This document shows, piece after piece, positions 34,901-43,180 of a stretch of 64,000 nt of DNA. Below the pieces are notes generated by a model that ran no database searches, was not told the DNA's origin, and saw only the letters and a program-made list of their open reading frames with translations. How positions within the stretch are numbered: the stretch's first letter is position 1; each line of letters opens with the position of its first letter. Origin of the DNA: Solen grandis (taxonomy: Eukaryota > Mollusca > Bivalvia > Adapedonta > Solenidae); NCBI GenBank assembly GCA_021229015.1, contig CM037785.1, positions 38,498,766 through 38,562,765 of the forward strand, read 5' to 3'. Made by a program: the position numbers and the translations under genes.

Positions 34901-35429
34901 GTAAGACCCACATATTCTCTCTCTTTCTCTCTCTTCATTTCTTCCTTAGACTTTTTACACAGCAGACAAAATTCCACTCATGAAATTTATACTTCAACCC
35001 TGAAACAATCATATGGTTATTTTGTATGTAGTTAATTTATATGCATGGGCTTGGTTAAAGTATTAAGATGCAAGTTTGGCCATGTTATTGGTAAAACACA
35101 CAATTCCATTGTATAAATTAGCATTTCTTCTTCTTTTTTTTAATGCTTTATCATTCAGGTCTGGATAACATTCATCCTGTAAATATGCAATGGACTATAT
35201 ATAAGTCGTTATTCAATCTAGTGACCATCTATTCGATTATGTCTTTATCCCCTGTTACAAAAAACACAATTTATTTTTATTTATTTCCTAGTCTTTTTGA
35301 CTTCACTAGTCTTTTTGACTACCCCCCCCCCCATGTAGAATGGGTCCCCCGGTGGCTGGTTTTGGACCACTTTTACACCGAATGACCTTTGCGATCTTTT
35401 TCTTGCAACCTCTATATCTTTTTATTTTA

Positions 35430-35646
35430 CTATAGCGCAAATTTTGCGGAAGCTATCGCGGTTTCGACAACCTTTTTTGTAGTACAGCCATGCCAAGTAG
35501 GTACACTAGCCAGGTAGGTATAACCAACCAACCAGGTAGTTACAACAAGCCAGATAGGGTAGGTACAACCAGCCAGCCATGGATACATCACCGGGGATAG
35601 CACAAGAGGGGTGTCTTTTGGTTGTCGAAATTGTTTTCCTATTAGA
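35430..35646 (+). repeat. left terminal inverted repeat
   Basis: Matches the reverse complement of 41415-41630 with only scattered mismatches. Inside it, a GTAGGTAC(A)ACCAGCC-type motif recurs (GCCAGGTAGGTATAACC, AACCAGGTAGTTACAAC, GGTAGGTACAACCAGCC), so the repeat is itself made of short direct repeats that could bind protein. Confidence 0.9.
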
Positions 35647-38600
35647 GAAAAGCAAACACCTAGCATAGAGCAACCCGCATACCTACAGCAACAATGACAG
35701 TATAAGCTACATTCCATGCGATGGAGATACGGTCCGAGAAGTCTGTGGCCACCCATTTGCTCTCGAAAACGCGCACGAGAGCAACCTCGTTCCAGACATA
35801 GCCGAGGTCGACTACTTGGCCGGAAACTTGAGACGCACCCACCTACGCCCCCTAGAGGGACTTCCGACGTTTGTCGACGATGTGTACGTGTTTGGGTACA
35901 TGCGACGCGAAGACTGCGTATCTTGAGCCGGTCGCCTCTACTGCACAATCGGAGAAGACGGCACCGCAAAATACATCGTCGCTAGGATTTCTACCGCCGT
36001 GCGCGAGAGCATGGGGAAGGACCCAAATGGAAAATCGATAGGCCACATACAGGCGAACATAGTCAACACGCTTGCGACCCGAAAAAACGTCGAAGGCAGC
36101 GCTATCTTGGAGACGATCGCCAGTTTCGAGTCCGACACCAGGAAAAAAGCGCTGGCGAATTGGCGAGAGCTGTACCCGAAGACCGAACCTGCCGGAGTCT
36201 TTGTGACAAAGGTGGACGTTTCCAAGATCCCTATGGGCGAGCCGCAAGCATCTTTGCCGGCCTTCGAACGCCAGCTGTTGGCCCATGGATATGCCCTCTA
36301 CTGCATAGACTACACGCAGGACTTTTCTGGGGTCCTAGACCGAAAAGCTCTTGTGGAATACCTATGCGAGTTCGAAGGGTTCCGCGAGCAAGGCGACCTG
36401 GCCACCGCAATGCGAACGTCCACTGCCACGATCTTGGCGAACACCGACAGCGTAGGAAAGCACGTTTGTACATAGGTGCGAAGCGAATCTGGCTACACGG
36501 TCCGCACAAAGCTGTACAACAAGGTTGTGTCGAACTTCGAGGCTGGCGAGGTCGGAGAGCCTATTGGCGGGCACTTGGCCGACTACGTCGACTGCCCAAA
36601 CGACCACCTGCGGCGCACATTCTTGCATCCAGACGTACAGGCGCGCGGATGCACCCGTATCGAAGTCTCTCTGTATGCCTGCCGAGGACGAGATCTCTCG
36701 GAACACACGGCCAAAGAGGTGGTTTGAGAGGCCCTTGTCTCCCCCTAGAAAAAAGAAGGCTTGTTTGTTGTCCAGCCACACACCAAGCAGTGGGAGAACC
36801 TTTCTACGTGCCTCGACCGGTGTCTTGTCTTGGCCGACTGACCCCAGGGATCGATATTCGTCGCCTGGTATGCGTACACTACGACGGGATGAGTCTCGGG
36901 AGTTCGAGTCCGGCCCACCAAAGCCAACGTAGACAACGACAAAACTTGGGATAGGGCCGTGGAGTATTTGCAGCCAGCAAGAGGCCAACCCAACTACACC
37001 CGAAAGGCCCAAACCCTTCGACCCTTTTGCCACCCTCGGCAACGGTAGAGTGGGTTTGGAGGGCCAAAAAGTGCCATGCGATAGGCGTAGACGTCTCGGC
37101 CTACGAAATACAAGAGGTCCCAGAGGTGACAGAAGGCTGCAAAATCTCTTTGCTATCGAGATGGAACCGCGAAAAGCGCCTCCAAGAAATCCGAGACGCG
37201 GCAAACGCCGAAAAGTGGAAGCGACGTGCCTGGGCTAGAAGAAGAGAAGCGACACTACAAAGAACAACAGAGCCGAAGAACTTGCATGCTTGGCCAAAAT
37301 AACGGAGGCAAAAATGAGGTACGAGGCGTTGTCGCTGGAAACCATGGAGCAGGTCGAGGACGCTTTGGGCGCATATACGACGGACAAGGTTGCAGACATA
37401 GCCGGGCCAGATAGATGGATCGTTCTTGGGTACCGCCAGACACAAACAGCCATCGCGTAGTCTTGGTACGCACGGACGATAGAGCCCTCTATGTCGTGTG
37501 GGCAACGAAGGGACTCGGAAGGGTGCTAGACGAGTGCGCCGACCTGTTCGAGTCGAAAACCGACGGACGGAACAAAAGAACAACACACTGGCTTCCACAA
37601 GTTGGCACTGGTAGTCTCGCTGGGCTCGAAATAGAGATAGAGCAGGGTATTCCAGGCCAGGGGGGACCAGATCTCTTGGAACCCGATACACGTTGTTGCC
37701 GCCCCAGATCCCCAGCAACTGGCCACCCTGCAGGCCTTGGCCAAAAAAGAGCAAGAGTACCAGAAGGTCGTGCAGTATGGTATGCTGCTGGAGGTCCCAG
37801 TCCCGAAAATCCAGGATACAAGAAAGGCGCTCGACATGCCACCAGGCGAATACCTCTGCCGGTGTAACGTTGTAAACTGACCCCATAGAATAATGACCCC
37901 CCGGTCATTAAATTATATAAAATAGTGACCCTTTTCTATAAAATACTGACACCCCTTATAAAATAATGACCCCCACAGAGTTTATCTATAAAATATTGAC
38001 CCCACCTAACCTGTTACTAATATACTCTATATCAATTCAAGTCACTGTCGTGTTTCAATCGCTTATATTTGTTGCTGTTGTTGTTGCTGCTGCTGCGTCC
38101 ACAGATGACACAACAACAGTTTATCTTAGAGCCCGCTAGGAAGTAAGCATGCATTTATTGAAAATAAAAGCTAAAATTGTTTTCATTTGTAATTGTAGGT
38201 TAAAGTTAACTTAAAAATAGAGAGAAACGGTATTTAGGATGGATGATAATTTTGGTTTTGTTCACAAACGGTATATTATCATCAATAATTAGACATCTAA
38301 AATGATTTTGGTCATTGATTTTTCTTGAGACATTGAGATCATCCTTTAGAAAGAAAACGTTTTCAAAAGTAAAAAACATTTGGAAACATATTTTATATGC
38401 TGGTTCGTCATCAATTTTGGGCCTTTATATAACCTATTTTACGGAGAAAATTTATTTATTTGCTTCTCCATGACATTTTATAAACAGTGAAACCTTAAGA
38501 AAAGAAAGAGTCACATAATGATCTATTAGCATTCTGCCGCAATAACAATTTTACTGGTCACTCATTCTTATTGTTTGTTGTGTATATTTGATTTCAGTCG

Positions 38601-38762
38601 TTTAAAACCTTTTTTTTGGCATATCAGCTAAAATATTTGTTGGCAAAGTTACATTTTTCTGGTTTGTTTTCAACTAAAATGGTAACAATTTCATCTGAGT
38701 GACGTAAGATAACCTTTGTTCATTACACGGTAGCATTGTTAAAAAAAAGCTCAATGCGCCTA

Positions 38763-39075
38763 CCGGCCCCGCTGGCCTAGTGGTTAGAGCGTCCGCATCG
38801 GGTGCGCGGGAGGTCGTGGGTTCGATCCCCGGCCGCGACATACCAAAGTCGTAAAAATGGTTGTGTTATAGCTCCCTTGCTTGGCGCTCAGCATATACGG
38901 GAAGTTGCACGACTGGTTGGCCCGGTGTCAGGATAGTGTGACTGGGTGTGGTATCATGCCACATGTCTACGGCGTGATACTTCAGTGTGGCAGCACTATA
39001 TATGTCTCAAGTAGACATCGCCTCAAAATGACTGAAACACTGTCGGTGGGACGTAAACCAAACAAACTCAATGCG
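38763..39075 (+). repeat. tRNA-headed SINE, best copy in the window
   Basis: The head has an A box (TGGCCTAGTGGTTAGAGCG) and B box (GGTTCGATCCC) like a tRNA gene, but its arms do not pair well enough for a functional tRNA. The body contains CTTGGCGCTCAGCATATACG, GGCCCGGTGTCAGGATAGTG and GGTGGGACGTAAACC. Relatives in reverse lie at 7688, 11829 and 12439. It sits inside the nested element, so it is the youngest of three stacked insertions. Confidence 0.85.
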
Positions 39076-39222
39076 CCCAAGAAGTAAGCCAGGCCTTCAC
39101 TATCGATGCCATCTCAAAGGTGAAAATGGGCAGTGTCTATTATGTTTCGTGTAGACTGCATCATTTCCGGAAACAGTTCCTTTGATTTACAGTAGAAATG
39201 CTGCTCATTTAACATCAAAGAA

Positions 39223-39251
39223 ACAAGCAAGCAAGCAAGCAAGCAAGCAAG
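39223..39251. repeat. CAAG microsatellite
   Basis: About seven copies of CAAG, inside the 1,950 bp nested element. The remainder of that element outside the SINE is AT-rich and non-coding. Confidence 0.9.
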
Positions 39252-40137
39252 CTGTATTTTATTGGCTGTATTATTTATACTAAGAAAAGTATATTTTAAA
39301 GAATACAATTATTATTATATCAATATAAGGCATAAATCTGTAAATCGGTTGTGGGGAAGTCCTATGTTTTATGAACTGCGACGCACATGGCAATAAGATG
39401 TTGTTCGAATTTAAGGGCTATAACTCTCGAATAGGTGGAGCAAATTCATTTCTTTCTTTGTGCACAATTAGGAATCGGCAGTAGTAGGCCTAATCCCTGA
39501 AAGTTTAAATCAATTCCGTCCAATAATGAATGAAGAGTGGTCACAAAATACTGTTGCGCATACGCACGTACAGACTGGTGCCATTACCATATTCTCCTCC
39601 GATGCCTATGTAATAAGTATACATTACATGGATATAGATTTGGGATAGGGGGTCGTTATTCTATAGGGGGTCACAATTCTACGTGTGGGTTTTTTTGGTG
39701 GATCATAATATTATGACCCCCGGTCATAATATTATGACCGGGGAGTCACTATTTTATATAATTTAATGACCGGGGGGTCATTATTCTATGGGGGTCAGTT
39801 TACAACGTTACACCGGCGCTATGCTTCGACAACCTTTCGAGGCTCGCCACGCACGATCCTATTCCTGGTTCCAGTTGGGGAGGATGGAGAACCCGCGACA
39901 GATGTAGAAACGCCAACATACGGATACTTTCTCGAGAGAGAGTTGGGCAAGGTCGAGTCGCTGCGAAAGACGCGTTCCCCCCTCCTCTGCAATTTGGGTG
40001 CGGTGTGGACGACGCCACAAAAAAAGGAAAGACCGTCTAGTCTGCCTGGTATCTCCAGGTTCTGCTACGGCCTAGACCACGACCACCCCACTTGGCAAAC
40101 AAAACAACATAGATCCGTGGTGCCCAACTACATATAG

Positions 40138-40527
40138 TTCTCCAAGGTCCCATTCCAGCAATTTTTTCGCCGCTTCTACCCCTATGCTCCCCAAAATTTC
40201 TGTCGAGTCGTTTTTGGCTACAAGATCTTCGAGCAACTTCCAAACTCGAGGACTCCCAGTTTCGAACCCCTTTCGAAGTTTTTGGATTTTTTTTCGAATG
40301 GAAAGCGTGGTGGGTTGCCTCTCCATGTTTGTTGTATAGCATACACGTGTCCTTTTCTCCAATTCCAAAATATTTTTGTTCGATTGCGATACACCCAGTC
40401 GTTTCAATCTGTGCAACCAGTTGTTTGCCATTGTTTGCAACCCTACAATAGACGTTTGCAATAGTTTGCAAATATTCCACACTTTCTTGCAGTACAATTG
40501 GAGGCTGGGAAATTGTATATTGCCATG
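40138..40527 (+). promoter_or_regulatory. spacer between the element's two genes
   Basis: About 390 bases of lower G+C than the flanking genes, with T-rich words and no continuous coding signal. It would be the natural place for a promoter of the downstream gene; no specific motif is claimed. Confidence 0.3.
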
Positions 40528-41212
40528 CCACCTAGACGAGATTTGTCCAAGGAGCAGATCCAAGAAATCCGCTCCCTCCGAAGTCGGCTGTCGGCATACG
40601 AGGCGAAAAATCGTTATGGTATCGGGTCCTCGAGGCTCTACAAGATTTGGCTGGACGATTTGGCAGTTCCTACCACGCAAAATGGTGTGCCCGATCCGAA
40701 AACTGCAGTCGTGCCGTACGGTTCCTGGGCCGCTTCGTACCCGAGGGACCTCTATAGAAAACCTATACGAGAGGTTGGGGCGGCTAGAGGCGGGATCGGA
40801 GCAGACTATGCCGCTACCTAGAGGAACCCCTATCGAAAAACTATACGAGAGGTTGGGTAGACTACAGGAGCGCGCGGAGCAAAATACAGATATGTTGGCA
40901 GAAGTGCTGGCCAAGATGGAGACCGACGACGACGACGACGCCTTTCTCGACGAGCTTCTGGTTGCTGTCGACAAGCAACAAAAAGGGCTGGCTGTCGAAG
41001 ACAAGAAGCAAGAGATAGAGGAGGATAAGAAGATAGTGGAAACAGCCCAGAAGGGGGCCTGCATTTCCATCGCTGCGGTAGTCGTAGTTGTGGCAACCTG
41101 GAAGCAATGCCAGCAGGAAATTCCACAAAAACCTACTCCCGTCCAGAAAACCGTCTATATGCCTCCACCTCCGGTTCCATCGACACGCATAGACCCCAAC
41201 TACATGGAATAG
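40528..41212 (+). pseudogene. second gene of the element: HTH-like, coiled-coil protein, one frameshift
   Basis: The N-terminal block (ATG 40528) reads MPPRRDLSKEQIQEIRSLRS then SAYEAKNRYGIGSSRLYKIW, a helix-turn-helix-like pattern as in DNA-binding N-termini. Around 40735 the coding signal moves to another frame and continues to the stop at 41210-41212. That second block has a duplicated 78 bp unit (about 40736-40805 and 40814-40882) encoding two LYERLGRL coiled-coil repeats, an acidic run ETDDDDDAFLDELL, a lysine/glutamate-rich stretch, a hydrophobic segment ACISIAAVVVVVATW that could be membrane-spanning, and a proline-rich tail. No relative recognised. A partner or regulator of the upstream gene is conceivable. 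Confidence 0.5.
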
Positions 41213-41214
41213 GC

Positions 41215-41414
41215 GCGAAAAAGGAGATTGGCTAGTGTACCTACTTGGCATGGCTGTTCTACAAAAAAGTTGCCCCAATTCGGCTCTCCCCGATGTGCCA
41301 CAAAAAGGTCGTGTTCGGTGCAAAAATTCTGCTCTCCCCGATGCCAACACAAAAAGGTCGTTCGGTGCAAAAAGTTGCCCCAATTTGCGGTTGCTCCGAC
41401 GAAAAATACACTCT
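41215..41414 (+). repeat. subterminal direct repeats
   Basis: GTTGCCCCAATT occurs at about 41270 and 41374, CTCTCCCCGATG twice (41284 and 41333), and CACAAAAAGGTCG twice (41298 and 41348). GTGTACCTACTTGGCATGGC at 41234 repeats a part of the adjacent inverted terminal repeat (41557). Such arrays next to transposon or replicon ends often bind the recombinase or initiator. Confidence 0.65.
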
Positions 41415-41630
41415 AGTATAGGAAAAAAATTTCGACAACCAAAAGACACCCCTCTGGTGCTATCCCCGGTGATGTACCCATGGCTGGCTGGTTGTACCTA
41501 CCCTATCTGGCTTGTTGTACCTACCTGGTTGGTTGGCTGTACCTACATGGCTAGTGTACCTACTTGGCATGGCTGTACTACAAAAATGGTTGTCGAAACC
41601 GCGGTAGCTTCCGCAAAATTTGCGCTATAG
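41415..41630 (-). repeat. right terminal inverted repeat
   Basis: Inverted partner of 35430-35646. Differences include GCTACCGCGG for GCTATCGCGG, CCATGTAGG for CCAGGTAGG and GCACCAG for GCACAAG; overall they look a few per cent diverged, implying some age since insertion. Confidence 0.9.
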
Positions 41631-41639
41631 TAATAACCT

Positions 41640-43180
41640 CATTGTGTGACAATATGGATAAAGAGTTTTCTCATTTTTAGAGGATTGTGTTTACAGAACA
41701 GGTGAGTCCATATGCTGGGCTCGCCAGCGGGGTGGGGCGGGCCCTGGTAGCCTACATTTGCGATAGCTCCGGCATGTGGGTCTGGACTATTAGAAATAAT
41801 GAGGGGCTCCGTTCGTCATAAAGGAGTAGTAATGAAAGGCTGGTCCAGAACAAGCCTTTTTATTACTACTCACCGACCTACCGCAAGCCAGCTGGAAGGC
41901 TTCCTCACCTGAAAATCCCGAAAAATTCCGGGATTCGAACCCACGTGGTGAGGGGCTGAGTGAGTGTTAAAGTTAATTCATTTATGTTCTGCAAAATGCA
42001 GGACTTTTTTTGTAAGAGGAAGGGGTCTCTAGGCTTGTCTAGCTACCGATCCTAAAACTTACCAGGGACCATATTTGTATTATCGAGCTACGTACATTAA
42101 CGCGATATTACACATCGAGCGTGACGTAACTTGACAGGAAAACACCAATAATTCGCAAAATTTCAAAATTGATCCTTTTTTCCAAACTTATTTTTTCTTA
42201 AATATAAGGAAAAAAGATAAAAACATGCATTTAATAAAAAGGTACCAAACCATTTTCATTCATATTTCTTTTATCTATTTTTTTTCCCCAAACCACCCCG
42301 TTAAATCTGCTTATAACTCTCAGCTAGCAGACTATAACAGATTTATGTAAGCCAACAGCTGCCAAGCGTTCAGTGAAGGCGACCATTAGCAATTGCAATT
42401 TGGTACCCTGCTTACACTCTGTAGTATAACAGGGGTGCAACCGCTCACGTTAACGATTACTGGATTCACTGAACAAAGAACAGTTCTTAAAATAATGCAT
42501 GTTTGATGCACTTCTCAACATTCCTATATACGGAAGTCATTTAGTTGTTGTTAAAGCAAAATTCACCCTTGACAATTATCACAATACAGCATGCCCATAT
42601 ATTCCATACAGGTTTATTTACCTACAAAATTGGCCATGTATCCACAAAATTGTAGGGCTCTCTTTATGAAGGGGAACAAAGCTCTGGAAAAACAAACAAT
42701 TGTATCCCCAGATATATGACCACTGTGAGTATGATGTTTCTTGTTCTCGTTTGGATCATCTTAAATCTTACACGCCAATATGTTCTGTTACGAAGAACAC
42801 ACCACTTCATTACAACTTTTGTTTATTGATATTATCTCTTAATGTCCGCCATACACGTGACAGACTTATTTTGAGTTCAATACTGACAACTGAAGGCGTT
42901 ATTTTGGAAATAGTTTGACTGTTGTTGGTTTTGGACGTTTTTTTTTTAATATCATTGACAACTTATAACATTTCAAGGGATGTATTGATGTATTAGGGGG
43001 ATATTTATTCTTAAGGTGAGGATCGGTCTTATGGTGAATTCGATACTCTGGAAAAGTCCAGTAGCACGTACTATCAAAAGAGACTACTAGAGGCAGTAAT
43101 AAACTCATGCCAAGTCAAGACAATTATAATCTGCGCTCGCTTCGAGGCTTTGCCTTTTACATTTTTTTTTTATTTCAAGG
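41640..43180. other. right flank of the element, repeats only
   Basis: Contains an imperfect palindrome (AGTAGTAATGAAAGGCT at 41825 against AGCCTTTTTATTACTACT at 41861), a SINE fragment with reverse B box (GGGATTCGAACCCACG, 41931-41946), and otherwise AT-rich spacer without a convincing gene. Confidence 0.5.

What the first reader, a model, noticed from the sequence alone, without database searches (positions are those of the whole stretch)
35430..41630. Unclassified G+C-rich element with 217 bp inverted ends and an initiator-like gene
Seen: long inverted ends abutting TA, an interior of very different composition from the host, two genes reading inward from the left end, subterminal direct repeats. 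Known: TA duplication with inverted ends would suggest Tc1/mariner or related DDE elements, and self-synthesising elements carry DNA polymerase B. Neither protein is visible; instead the main gene has motifs recalling Rep_trans replication initiators. A eukaryotic element with long inverted repeats and such a Rep would be a new combination: an integrated linear or circular replicon, a virus relative, or a new transposon class.
Basis: partly seen in the sequence, partly recalled or inferred. Interest (0 to 1): 0.92.

Follow-up and report, generated by a model that had tools for sequence, protein, structure and literature searches.

The report
Animal mobile element with bacterial-style nickase
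A 6.2 kb stretch of DNA with long mirror-image ends carries broken copies of two genes whose relatives turn up in other genomes, sea anemones among them for the main one, and that main gene is predicted to encode a DNA-nicking enzyme of a type that a 2026 paper knew only from bacteria and archaea, so this would likely be a new kind of animal mobile element.

Summary
In detail: 35430-41630 is bounded by inverted ends (216 bp, 9 mismatches) abutting TA; interior G+C is 0.55 and 0.50, against at most 0.41 in any 2.2-kb stretch outside. The left gene is a decayed member of a sizeable unnamed family: 213 proteins in a profile search (120 listed), sea-anemone records included; none was confirmed in the viral, phage, plasmid or prokaryotic-genome collections scanned. 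The right gene (HTH, coiled coil, hydrophobic segment) has one full relative, and one further protein carries both the left-gene core and the HTH. No Pfam or PDB match identifies the left family, and profile-profile alignment to Rep_trans failed. But the published Rep_trans catalytic residues, at published spacing and order, fall on the family's conserved columns (8 of 20,000 column shuffles do as well; 1 of 20,000 with R and K equal). The HUH motif is absent. I conclude: likely a new kind of inverted-repeat element driven by a Rep_trans-like tyrosine nickase. Fold, copy number, empty sites and exact target duplication could not be tested (structure prediction off; genome search unreachable).

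The parts
35427..35642 (+). left terminal inverted repeat; begins CTATAG at 35430, flanked by TA; carries repeated GGTAGGTAC-type units
41418..41633 (-). right terminal inverted repeat, 9 mismatches to the left one; ends CTATAG at 41630, followed by TA; about 23-bp units, 3.1 copies
35708..37880 (+). left gene, first part: decayed member of the Rep_trans-like family, interrupted by in-frame stops (35924-35926, 36473-36475, 36725-36727) and later frame changes; homology traced by tblastn to 37641, the rest inferred
39817..40037 (+). probable end of the left gene, resuming after the nested insert (inferred from open frame and composition; no homologue found for this piece among 131 proteins)
   Evidence: sequence; no match
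37858..39817 (.). nested AT-rich insert with its own inverted ends (27-bp and 49-bp perfect arms, overlapping by a few bases), splitting the left gene; not part of the original element
40040..40531 (-). open frame on the minus strand between the two genes; no Pfam or PHROGs match and no match among 131 fetched proteins; tentative
40498..40821 (+). right gene, N-terminal helix-turn-helix part (homology 40525-40680)
   Evidence: weak Pfam HTH_19, E 0.0057, below its cut-off
40733..41212 (+). right gene, coiled-coil, hydrophobic (membrane-like) segment and proline-rich tail (homology 40841-41164); frame differs from the HTH part
41229..41269 (-). extra 41-bp copy of part of the terminal repeat inside the right end, 98% complementary to 35472-35512

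Best explanation
The 6.2-kb stretch at 35430-41630 is likely a broken copy of a new kind of eukaryotic mobile element, with 216-bp inverted ends and two genes that have relatives in other genomes, and its left gene is predicted to encode a Rep_trans-like tyrosine nickase that would start its replication and movement. Shown: the ends, the TA flanks, the foreign composition, the decayed left gene with many relatives, the right gene with one full relative, the two genes together in one further protein, and conserved Asp-x3-Asp, Thr, Lys-x-Tyr-x-Lys and Arg-x-Glu columns in the order and spacing of the Rep_trans active site, after an earlier conserved Asp. Inferred: that these residues form a Rep_trans active site (metal held by two Asp and the Glu, Tyr as nucleophile), that the enzyme would nick near the CTATAG ends after binding the repeated units in the inverted ends, that copying from the free 3' end would give a single-stranded or circular intermediate, and that this would insert at TA. 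The right gene would be a membrane-anchored DNA-binding partner, for tethering or regulation. The copy here is dead: stops, frame changes and an inserted AT-rich element break it.
For: Inverted ends and composition. Family: 30 homologues of one 181-aa piece, best 72% identical, Nematostella vectensis; 213 proteins by profile, 120 listed, including Actinostola. None confirmed in viral contigs or prokaryotic genome contigs; no tblastn match in phages or plasmids. Catalytic template taken from PMC4797284 (passages: D46, R140, D142, A144, D146, T176, Y178, G180, R189, Y191, K193, R212, E214): score 7.48 of 13, reached by 8 of 20,000 column shuffles, 9 of 5,000 letter permutations and 38 of 20,000 random-spacing templates; true block order ranks 1 of 24; 8 of 10,000 shuffles on a second alignment. 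With R/K equal, a choice made after seeing the data: 1 of 20,000, 1 of 5,000, 3 of 20,000, 0 of 10,000. Two shorter templates, also chosen afterwards, gave 1 and 0 of 20,000 shuffles, 8 and 1 of 5,000 letter permutations. Conservation: D 56 of 60, D 121 of 125, D 118 of 123, T 106 of 118, K 107 of 111, Y 103 of 109, K 106 of 109, R 74 of 87, E 79 of 85. The four key columns lie in strand-like stretches (2 of 2,000 random quadruples reach this). Right gene; both genes in P0070.
Against: No member matches PF02486: 0 of 71 at E up to 0.19, 0 of 18 at E up to 1. hhalign against 9 Rep_trans proteins not significant (core against core score 16.1, reached by 9 of 60 column shuffles). Full Rep_trans block profiles not significant: 531 of 3,000 shuffles reach the score, and 0 of 23 members tested exceed the best of 48 E. 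coli decoy frames. Four template residues are absent (R140, A144, Y178, G180). The first Asp is a one-residue block without spacing information: the template put it at column 27, and its assignment to column 54 rests only on the in-order block placement, where that block alone scored better elsewhere. The lead of the true block order is small (7.48 against 7.28). The beta-propensity test is a weak yardstick: in real Rep_trans only 2 of 4 catalytic positions stand out. Terminal hairpins are no more stable than shuffles (75 and 79 of 200 fold as well). No structure could be predicted. No second copy, empty site or circular form was seen, because the own-genome search did not complete.
Confidence: 0.55

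Rival explanations
1. A cut-and-paste DNA transposon whose transposase is a diverged RNase H-like (DDE) enzyme; the conserved Asp and Glu residues would be a DDE triad, and TA would be a Tc1/mariner-like target duplication.
For: Inverted ends next to TA; eight Asp or Glu columns are conserved at 85% or more.
Against: No DDE or other transposase family in Pfam for 11 window pieces or for 71 relatives. The conserved Lys-x-Tyr-x-Lys and Arg-x-Glu have no role in a DDE triad. The conserved Glu lies in a strand-like stretch, whereas the DDE Glu usually sits on a helix (recalled).
Confidence: 0.22
2. An endogenised relic of a small animal DNA virus or linear/circular episome with inverted ends, the Rep-like gene being its replication initiator and the right gene a virion or membrane protein.
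For: Rep-like gene, inverted ends, a helix-turn-helix protein with a hydrophobic segment and proline-rich tail; strongly different composition; a weak match of the right gene to a phage family of unknown function (phrog_451, E 0.0003), possibly only through its coiled coil.
Against: No capsid, polymerase or packaging domain in the window pieces scanned (11 against Pfam; 6 against PHROGs). Relatives were not confirmed in IMG/VR viral contigs in three protein scans for the left gene, one for the right gene and one exact pattern scan for the end sequence.
Confidence: 0.18
3. The resemblance to Rep_trans is convergence: the family is a new tyrosine nickase or recombinase of unrelated fold with a similar set of residues.
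For: Profile-profile and block-profile tests fail; four template residues missing.
Against: Order and spacing match above chance. Archaeal Rep-Arvir shows that true relatives can be invisible to sequence tools (PMC13107129, abstract passage).
Confidence: 0.2

Closest known systems
Rep_trans replication initiators (PF02486; pT181 RepC, RepD; NicK/MobT relaxases)
   Same: Order and local spacing of catalytic residues: Asp-x3-Asp, Thr, basic-x-Tyr-x-Lys, Arg-x-Glu, with an Asp upstream.
   Different: Not recognised by the Pfam model or by hhalign; R140, A144, Y178, G180 not kept; longer protein; animal hosts; inverted ends.
Rep-Arvir (archaeal viruses and plasmids, DUF7845/PF25227)
   Same: Also a Rep_trans relative not recognisable by sequence, per PMC13107129 (passages).
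   Different: Archaeal; Tyr in a KHYYM context in SNJ2 rather than YNK; 0 of 71 members here match PF25227 at E up to 0.19.
Replitrons and Helitrons (eukaryotic HUH elements)
   Same: Would also move by a single-strand nickase.
   Different: They rely on an HUH nuclease (recalled; one search gave listings only); no two majority-His columns two apart here. Long inverted ends are not a Helitron feature (recalled).
Tc1/mariner and other TIR-DDE transposons
   Same: Inverted ends next to TA.
   Different: No DDE domain found.
Polintons/Mavericks
   Same: Long inverted ends (recalled).
   Different: No DNA polymerase B, integrase or capsid match in 11 window pieces; far smaller (recalled).

Membership tests
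Rep_trans (PF02486) | match to the curated Pfam profile | tested here: not met
   0 of 71 members at E up to 0.19, 0 of 18 at E up to 1; 4 of 4 bacterial/phage controls scanned match
Rep_trans (PF02486) | profile-profile similarity | tested here: not met
Rep_trans (PF02486) | catalytic Tyr with Lys two residues on, preceded by a basic residue | tested here: met
   K-x-Y-x-K conserved 107/111, 103/109, 106/109; here Lys where Rep_trans has Arg189
Rep_trans (PF02486) | metal-binding Asp (second) and Glu in order around the Tyr, with Asp-x3-Asp and Arg-x-Glu context | tested here: met
   121/125 and 79/85; template test above chance
Rep_trans (PF02486) | first metal-binding Asp (D46) on an N-terminal strand | tested here: inconclusive
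   a candidate Asp is kept in 56/60, but the one-residue block does not single it out (template placed it at column 27)
Rep_trans (PF02486) | further strictly conserved residues R140, A144, Y178, G180 | tested here: not met
   mostly S/C/Q, T, V/I, T
Rep_trans (PF02486) | TBP-like fold | not testable with these tools
   structure prediction switched off
HUH nickase elements (Helitron, Replitron, CRESS Rep) | His-hydrophobic-His motif | tested here: not met
   majority-His columns 13, 110, 207, 239, 276, 287, 294, 376: none two apart
Tc1/mariner-type TIR transposon | DDE transposase | tested here: not met
   no transposase family in Pfam for 11 window pieces or 71 relatives
Tc1/mariner-type TIR transposon | TA target duplication | tested here: inconclusive
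   TA on both sides, but CTATAG is palindromic and only one copy was seen
Polinton/Maverick | DNA polymerase B, integrase, capsid genes | tested here: not met
   none in 11 window pieces scanned against Pfam (7, 4)

The most novel reading that the evidence does not exclude
A new class of animal mobile element: long inverted ends plus a Rep_trans-type (non-HUH, TBP-fold) tyrosine nickase and a membrane-anchored DNA-binding partner, spread through marine invertebrates, partly by horizontal transfer. It would be the first Rep_trans-lineage enzyme in eukaryotes, completing the three domains of life.
Probability: 0.45. Interest if true: 0.93.

Novelty: categorically new. Interest (0 to 1): 0.82.

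Why it matters
The single-strand mobile elements of eukaryotes that I know of use HUH nickases (recalled). A 2026 paper (PMC13107129, passages) states that Rep_trans enzymes appear restricted to bacteria and extends the fold to archaea by structure alone. An animal family with the same catalytic layout would extend it to eukaryotes and would add a new transposition mechanism, with inverted ends and a Rep-type nickase in one element. It would also give a name to a gene family that the records seen here call 'predicted protein' or 'hypothetical protein', or leave unnamed.

Tried and rejected
Rejected: tRNA or Rfam features as the basis (none). A terminal hairpin as nick site: stability equals shuffles. 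An HUH nickase: no His pair. A phage or plasmid origin: no tblastn match. A 13-mer shared by the end and 39825: expected about 0.4 times by chance, set aside (own arithmetic).

Led nowhere: A1 was too gappy for a locus scan, so a smaller alignment, A2, was scanned. In one search two of seven queries (the minus-strand frame and the coiled-coil part) were translated out of frame; both were redone in frame. Two of the codon-position rows were also out of frame and are not used. A viral-contig scan with an inovirus Rep found nothing. Nine paper searches listed no report of a Rep_trans protein in animals; only their listings were read, plus passages of PMC5703833, PMC4797284 and PMC13107129. Repbase and Dfam were not available.
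Full report
The ends at 35427-35642 and 41418-41633 are inverted copies over 216 nt with 9 mismatches. From CTATAG to CTATAG the element is 35430-41630, with TA on each side. Outside TTACTATAG the flanks diverge. Interior G+C is 0.553 left and 0.503 right, against at most 0.408 in 53,363 stretches of 2,215 bp elsewhere. The target duplication cannot be fixed from one copy, because CTATAG is a palindrome.

37858-39817 is AT-rich (G+C 0.379), has its own perfect inverted arms of 27 and 49 nt, and splits the left gene. Without it the element is about 4.2 kb.

The left gene appears to be one long frame, broken by three in-frame stops in its first kilobase and by later frame changes. A 181-aa piece found 30 homologues, the best 72% identical, a Nematostella vectensis record; others are filed under symbiont bins (Candidatus Thiodiazotropha, a Ctena orbiculata symbiont), where clam host DNA is the likely source (that these are lucinid symbionts is recalled). 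A profile of eight of them found 213 proteins with E at most 0.01 among 5,820 candidates; the best 120 were listed, many on contigs of hundreds of kilobases, one from the sea anemone Actinostola. Relatives were not confirmed in viral contigs or prokaryotic genome contigs, nor matched in phage and plasmid records. So, as far as the records name hosts, this is a family of animal genomes; most listed proteins carry no host name.

What the left gene encodes was tested in several ways. Pfam: no match that would identify it for the window pieces (11), for 18 members or for 71 members (23 families, each in at most 4 members, none Rep_trans). PHROGs: only E 0.19 or worse for its three pieces. PDB by sequence: nothing; one search gave three matches at E 0.26 or worse. 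hhalign failed, also core against core (101 of 130 family rows against 9; 9 of 60 column shuffles reach the score). Whole block profiles failed too: 531 of 3,000 shuffles reach the score, and 0 of 23 members tested beat the best of 48 decoy frames; but the best in-order placement of the four blocks on the family profile fell on the four expected motifs, and three of the four blocks (not the first) have their single best position there.

The active-site residues alone give a clearer result. PMC4797284 (passages) names D46, D142 and E214 as metal ligands, Y191 as nucleophile, and R140, A144, D146, T176, Y178, G180, R189, K193, R212 (and E196, left out of my template) as conserved. Used as a fixed-spacing, in-order template on the 130-row family profile, the 13 residues score 7.48; 8 of 20,000 column shuffles and 9 of 5,000 letter-permuted templates do as well, and 38 of 20,000 random-spacing templates. 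Treating Arg and Lys as equal, a choice made after seeing the data, gives 1 of 20,000, 1 of 5,000 and 3 of 20,000. Two shorter templates, likewise chosen afterwards, gave 1 and 0 of 20,000 shuffles, and 8 and 1 of 5,000 letter permutations. The true order of blocks ranks first of 24, by a small margin (7.48 against 7.28), and a second alignment (71 rows) gives 8 of 10,000 and 0 of 10,000. Nine of the 13 sites are kept in at least 85% of the rows that cover them (Lys in place of Arg189); R140, A144, Y178 and G180 are not. The first Asp is a block of one residue: the template placed it at column 27, so the assignment of D46 to column 54 (FVDD motif) is only a proposal. The four proposed columns lie in strand-like stretches (2 of 2,000 random quadruples); this is soft evidence, since only 2 of 4 stand out in Rep_trans itself by the same measure. 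No two majority-His columns lie two apart, so the HUH class is not met.

The right gene is real. Its 159-aa piece found one homologue among 297 candidates, P0131, which matches both the coiled-coil part (39% over 119 columns) and, separately, the helix-turn-helix part (52% over 52) of the window, so the two pieces belong to one gene. The hydrophobic segment scores 1.68 here and 0.99 in P0131 on the Kyte-Doolittle scale, so membrane anchoring is plausible but not certain. P0070, a protein from another assembly (longest contig 361 kb), carries the left-gene core (57% to P0006 over 161 columns) and the helix-turn-helix part (54% to the window over 37 residues) in one gene model. That links the two genes outside this window, with the caution that gene models can join neighbours wrongly. 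Each of these two links rests on one protein.

Mechanism. I commit to a nickase-driven element: the Rep-like protein would bind the roughly 23-bp repeats in the inverted ends, cut one strand near CTATAG, stay bound through its Tyr, and let the host polymerase copy the element from the free 3' end. Binding, cutting, intermediate and insertion are all inferred. A simple hairpin at the end is not supported.

Novelty. PMC13107129 (passages) states that Rep_trans enzymes appear restricted to bacteria and finds archaeal relatives by structure. My nine paper searches listed nothing on such proteins in animals; the lists are capped, Repbase and Dfam were not searched, and most subscription papers are missing from the library.

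Limits. The own-genome search did not complete (17 calls), structure prediction was off, and no DNA around the relatives could be fetched. So the inverted ends have been seen in one copy only, and their link with the gene family rests on this window.

Noticed in passing
window 37858-39817: AT-rich insert with perfect inverted arms and TGACCCCC-type repeats near its ends, nested in the left gene; it looks like a non-autonomous transposon of its own.
   Followed up: partly
window 38743-39077: A tRNA-like stretch (box A and box B-like sequences, by eye) flanked by 18-nt direct repeats (89% alike), likely a SINE inside the nested insert; a box B-like stretch lies at 41928-41945 on the other strand. 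ARAGORN reports no tRNA gene.
   Followed up: no
window 41229-41269: A 41-bp piece of the terminal repeat is repeated inside the right end, as if the end had been partly duplicated.
   Followed up: partly
P0003, P0004, P0013, P0023, P0066, P0102, P0122: Seven fragments of the family are filed under one Candidatus Thiodiazotropha bin (AB2556 locus tags), probably DNA of the clam host in a symbiont bin and a sign of many copies.
   Followed up: no
P0001 against window 35930-36475: 72% identity between a decayed copy here and a sea-anemone record is high for old vertical descent and hints at horizontal transfer; contamination of the 8.2-kb scaffold is not excluded.
   Followed up: no
P0078: A gene model joins the Rep-like core to Kelch repeats; either a model error or a host gene fused with the element.
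   Followed up: no
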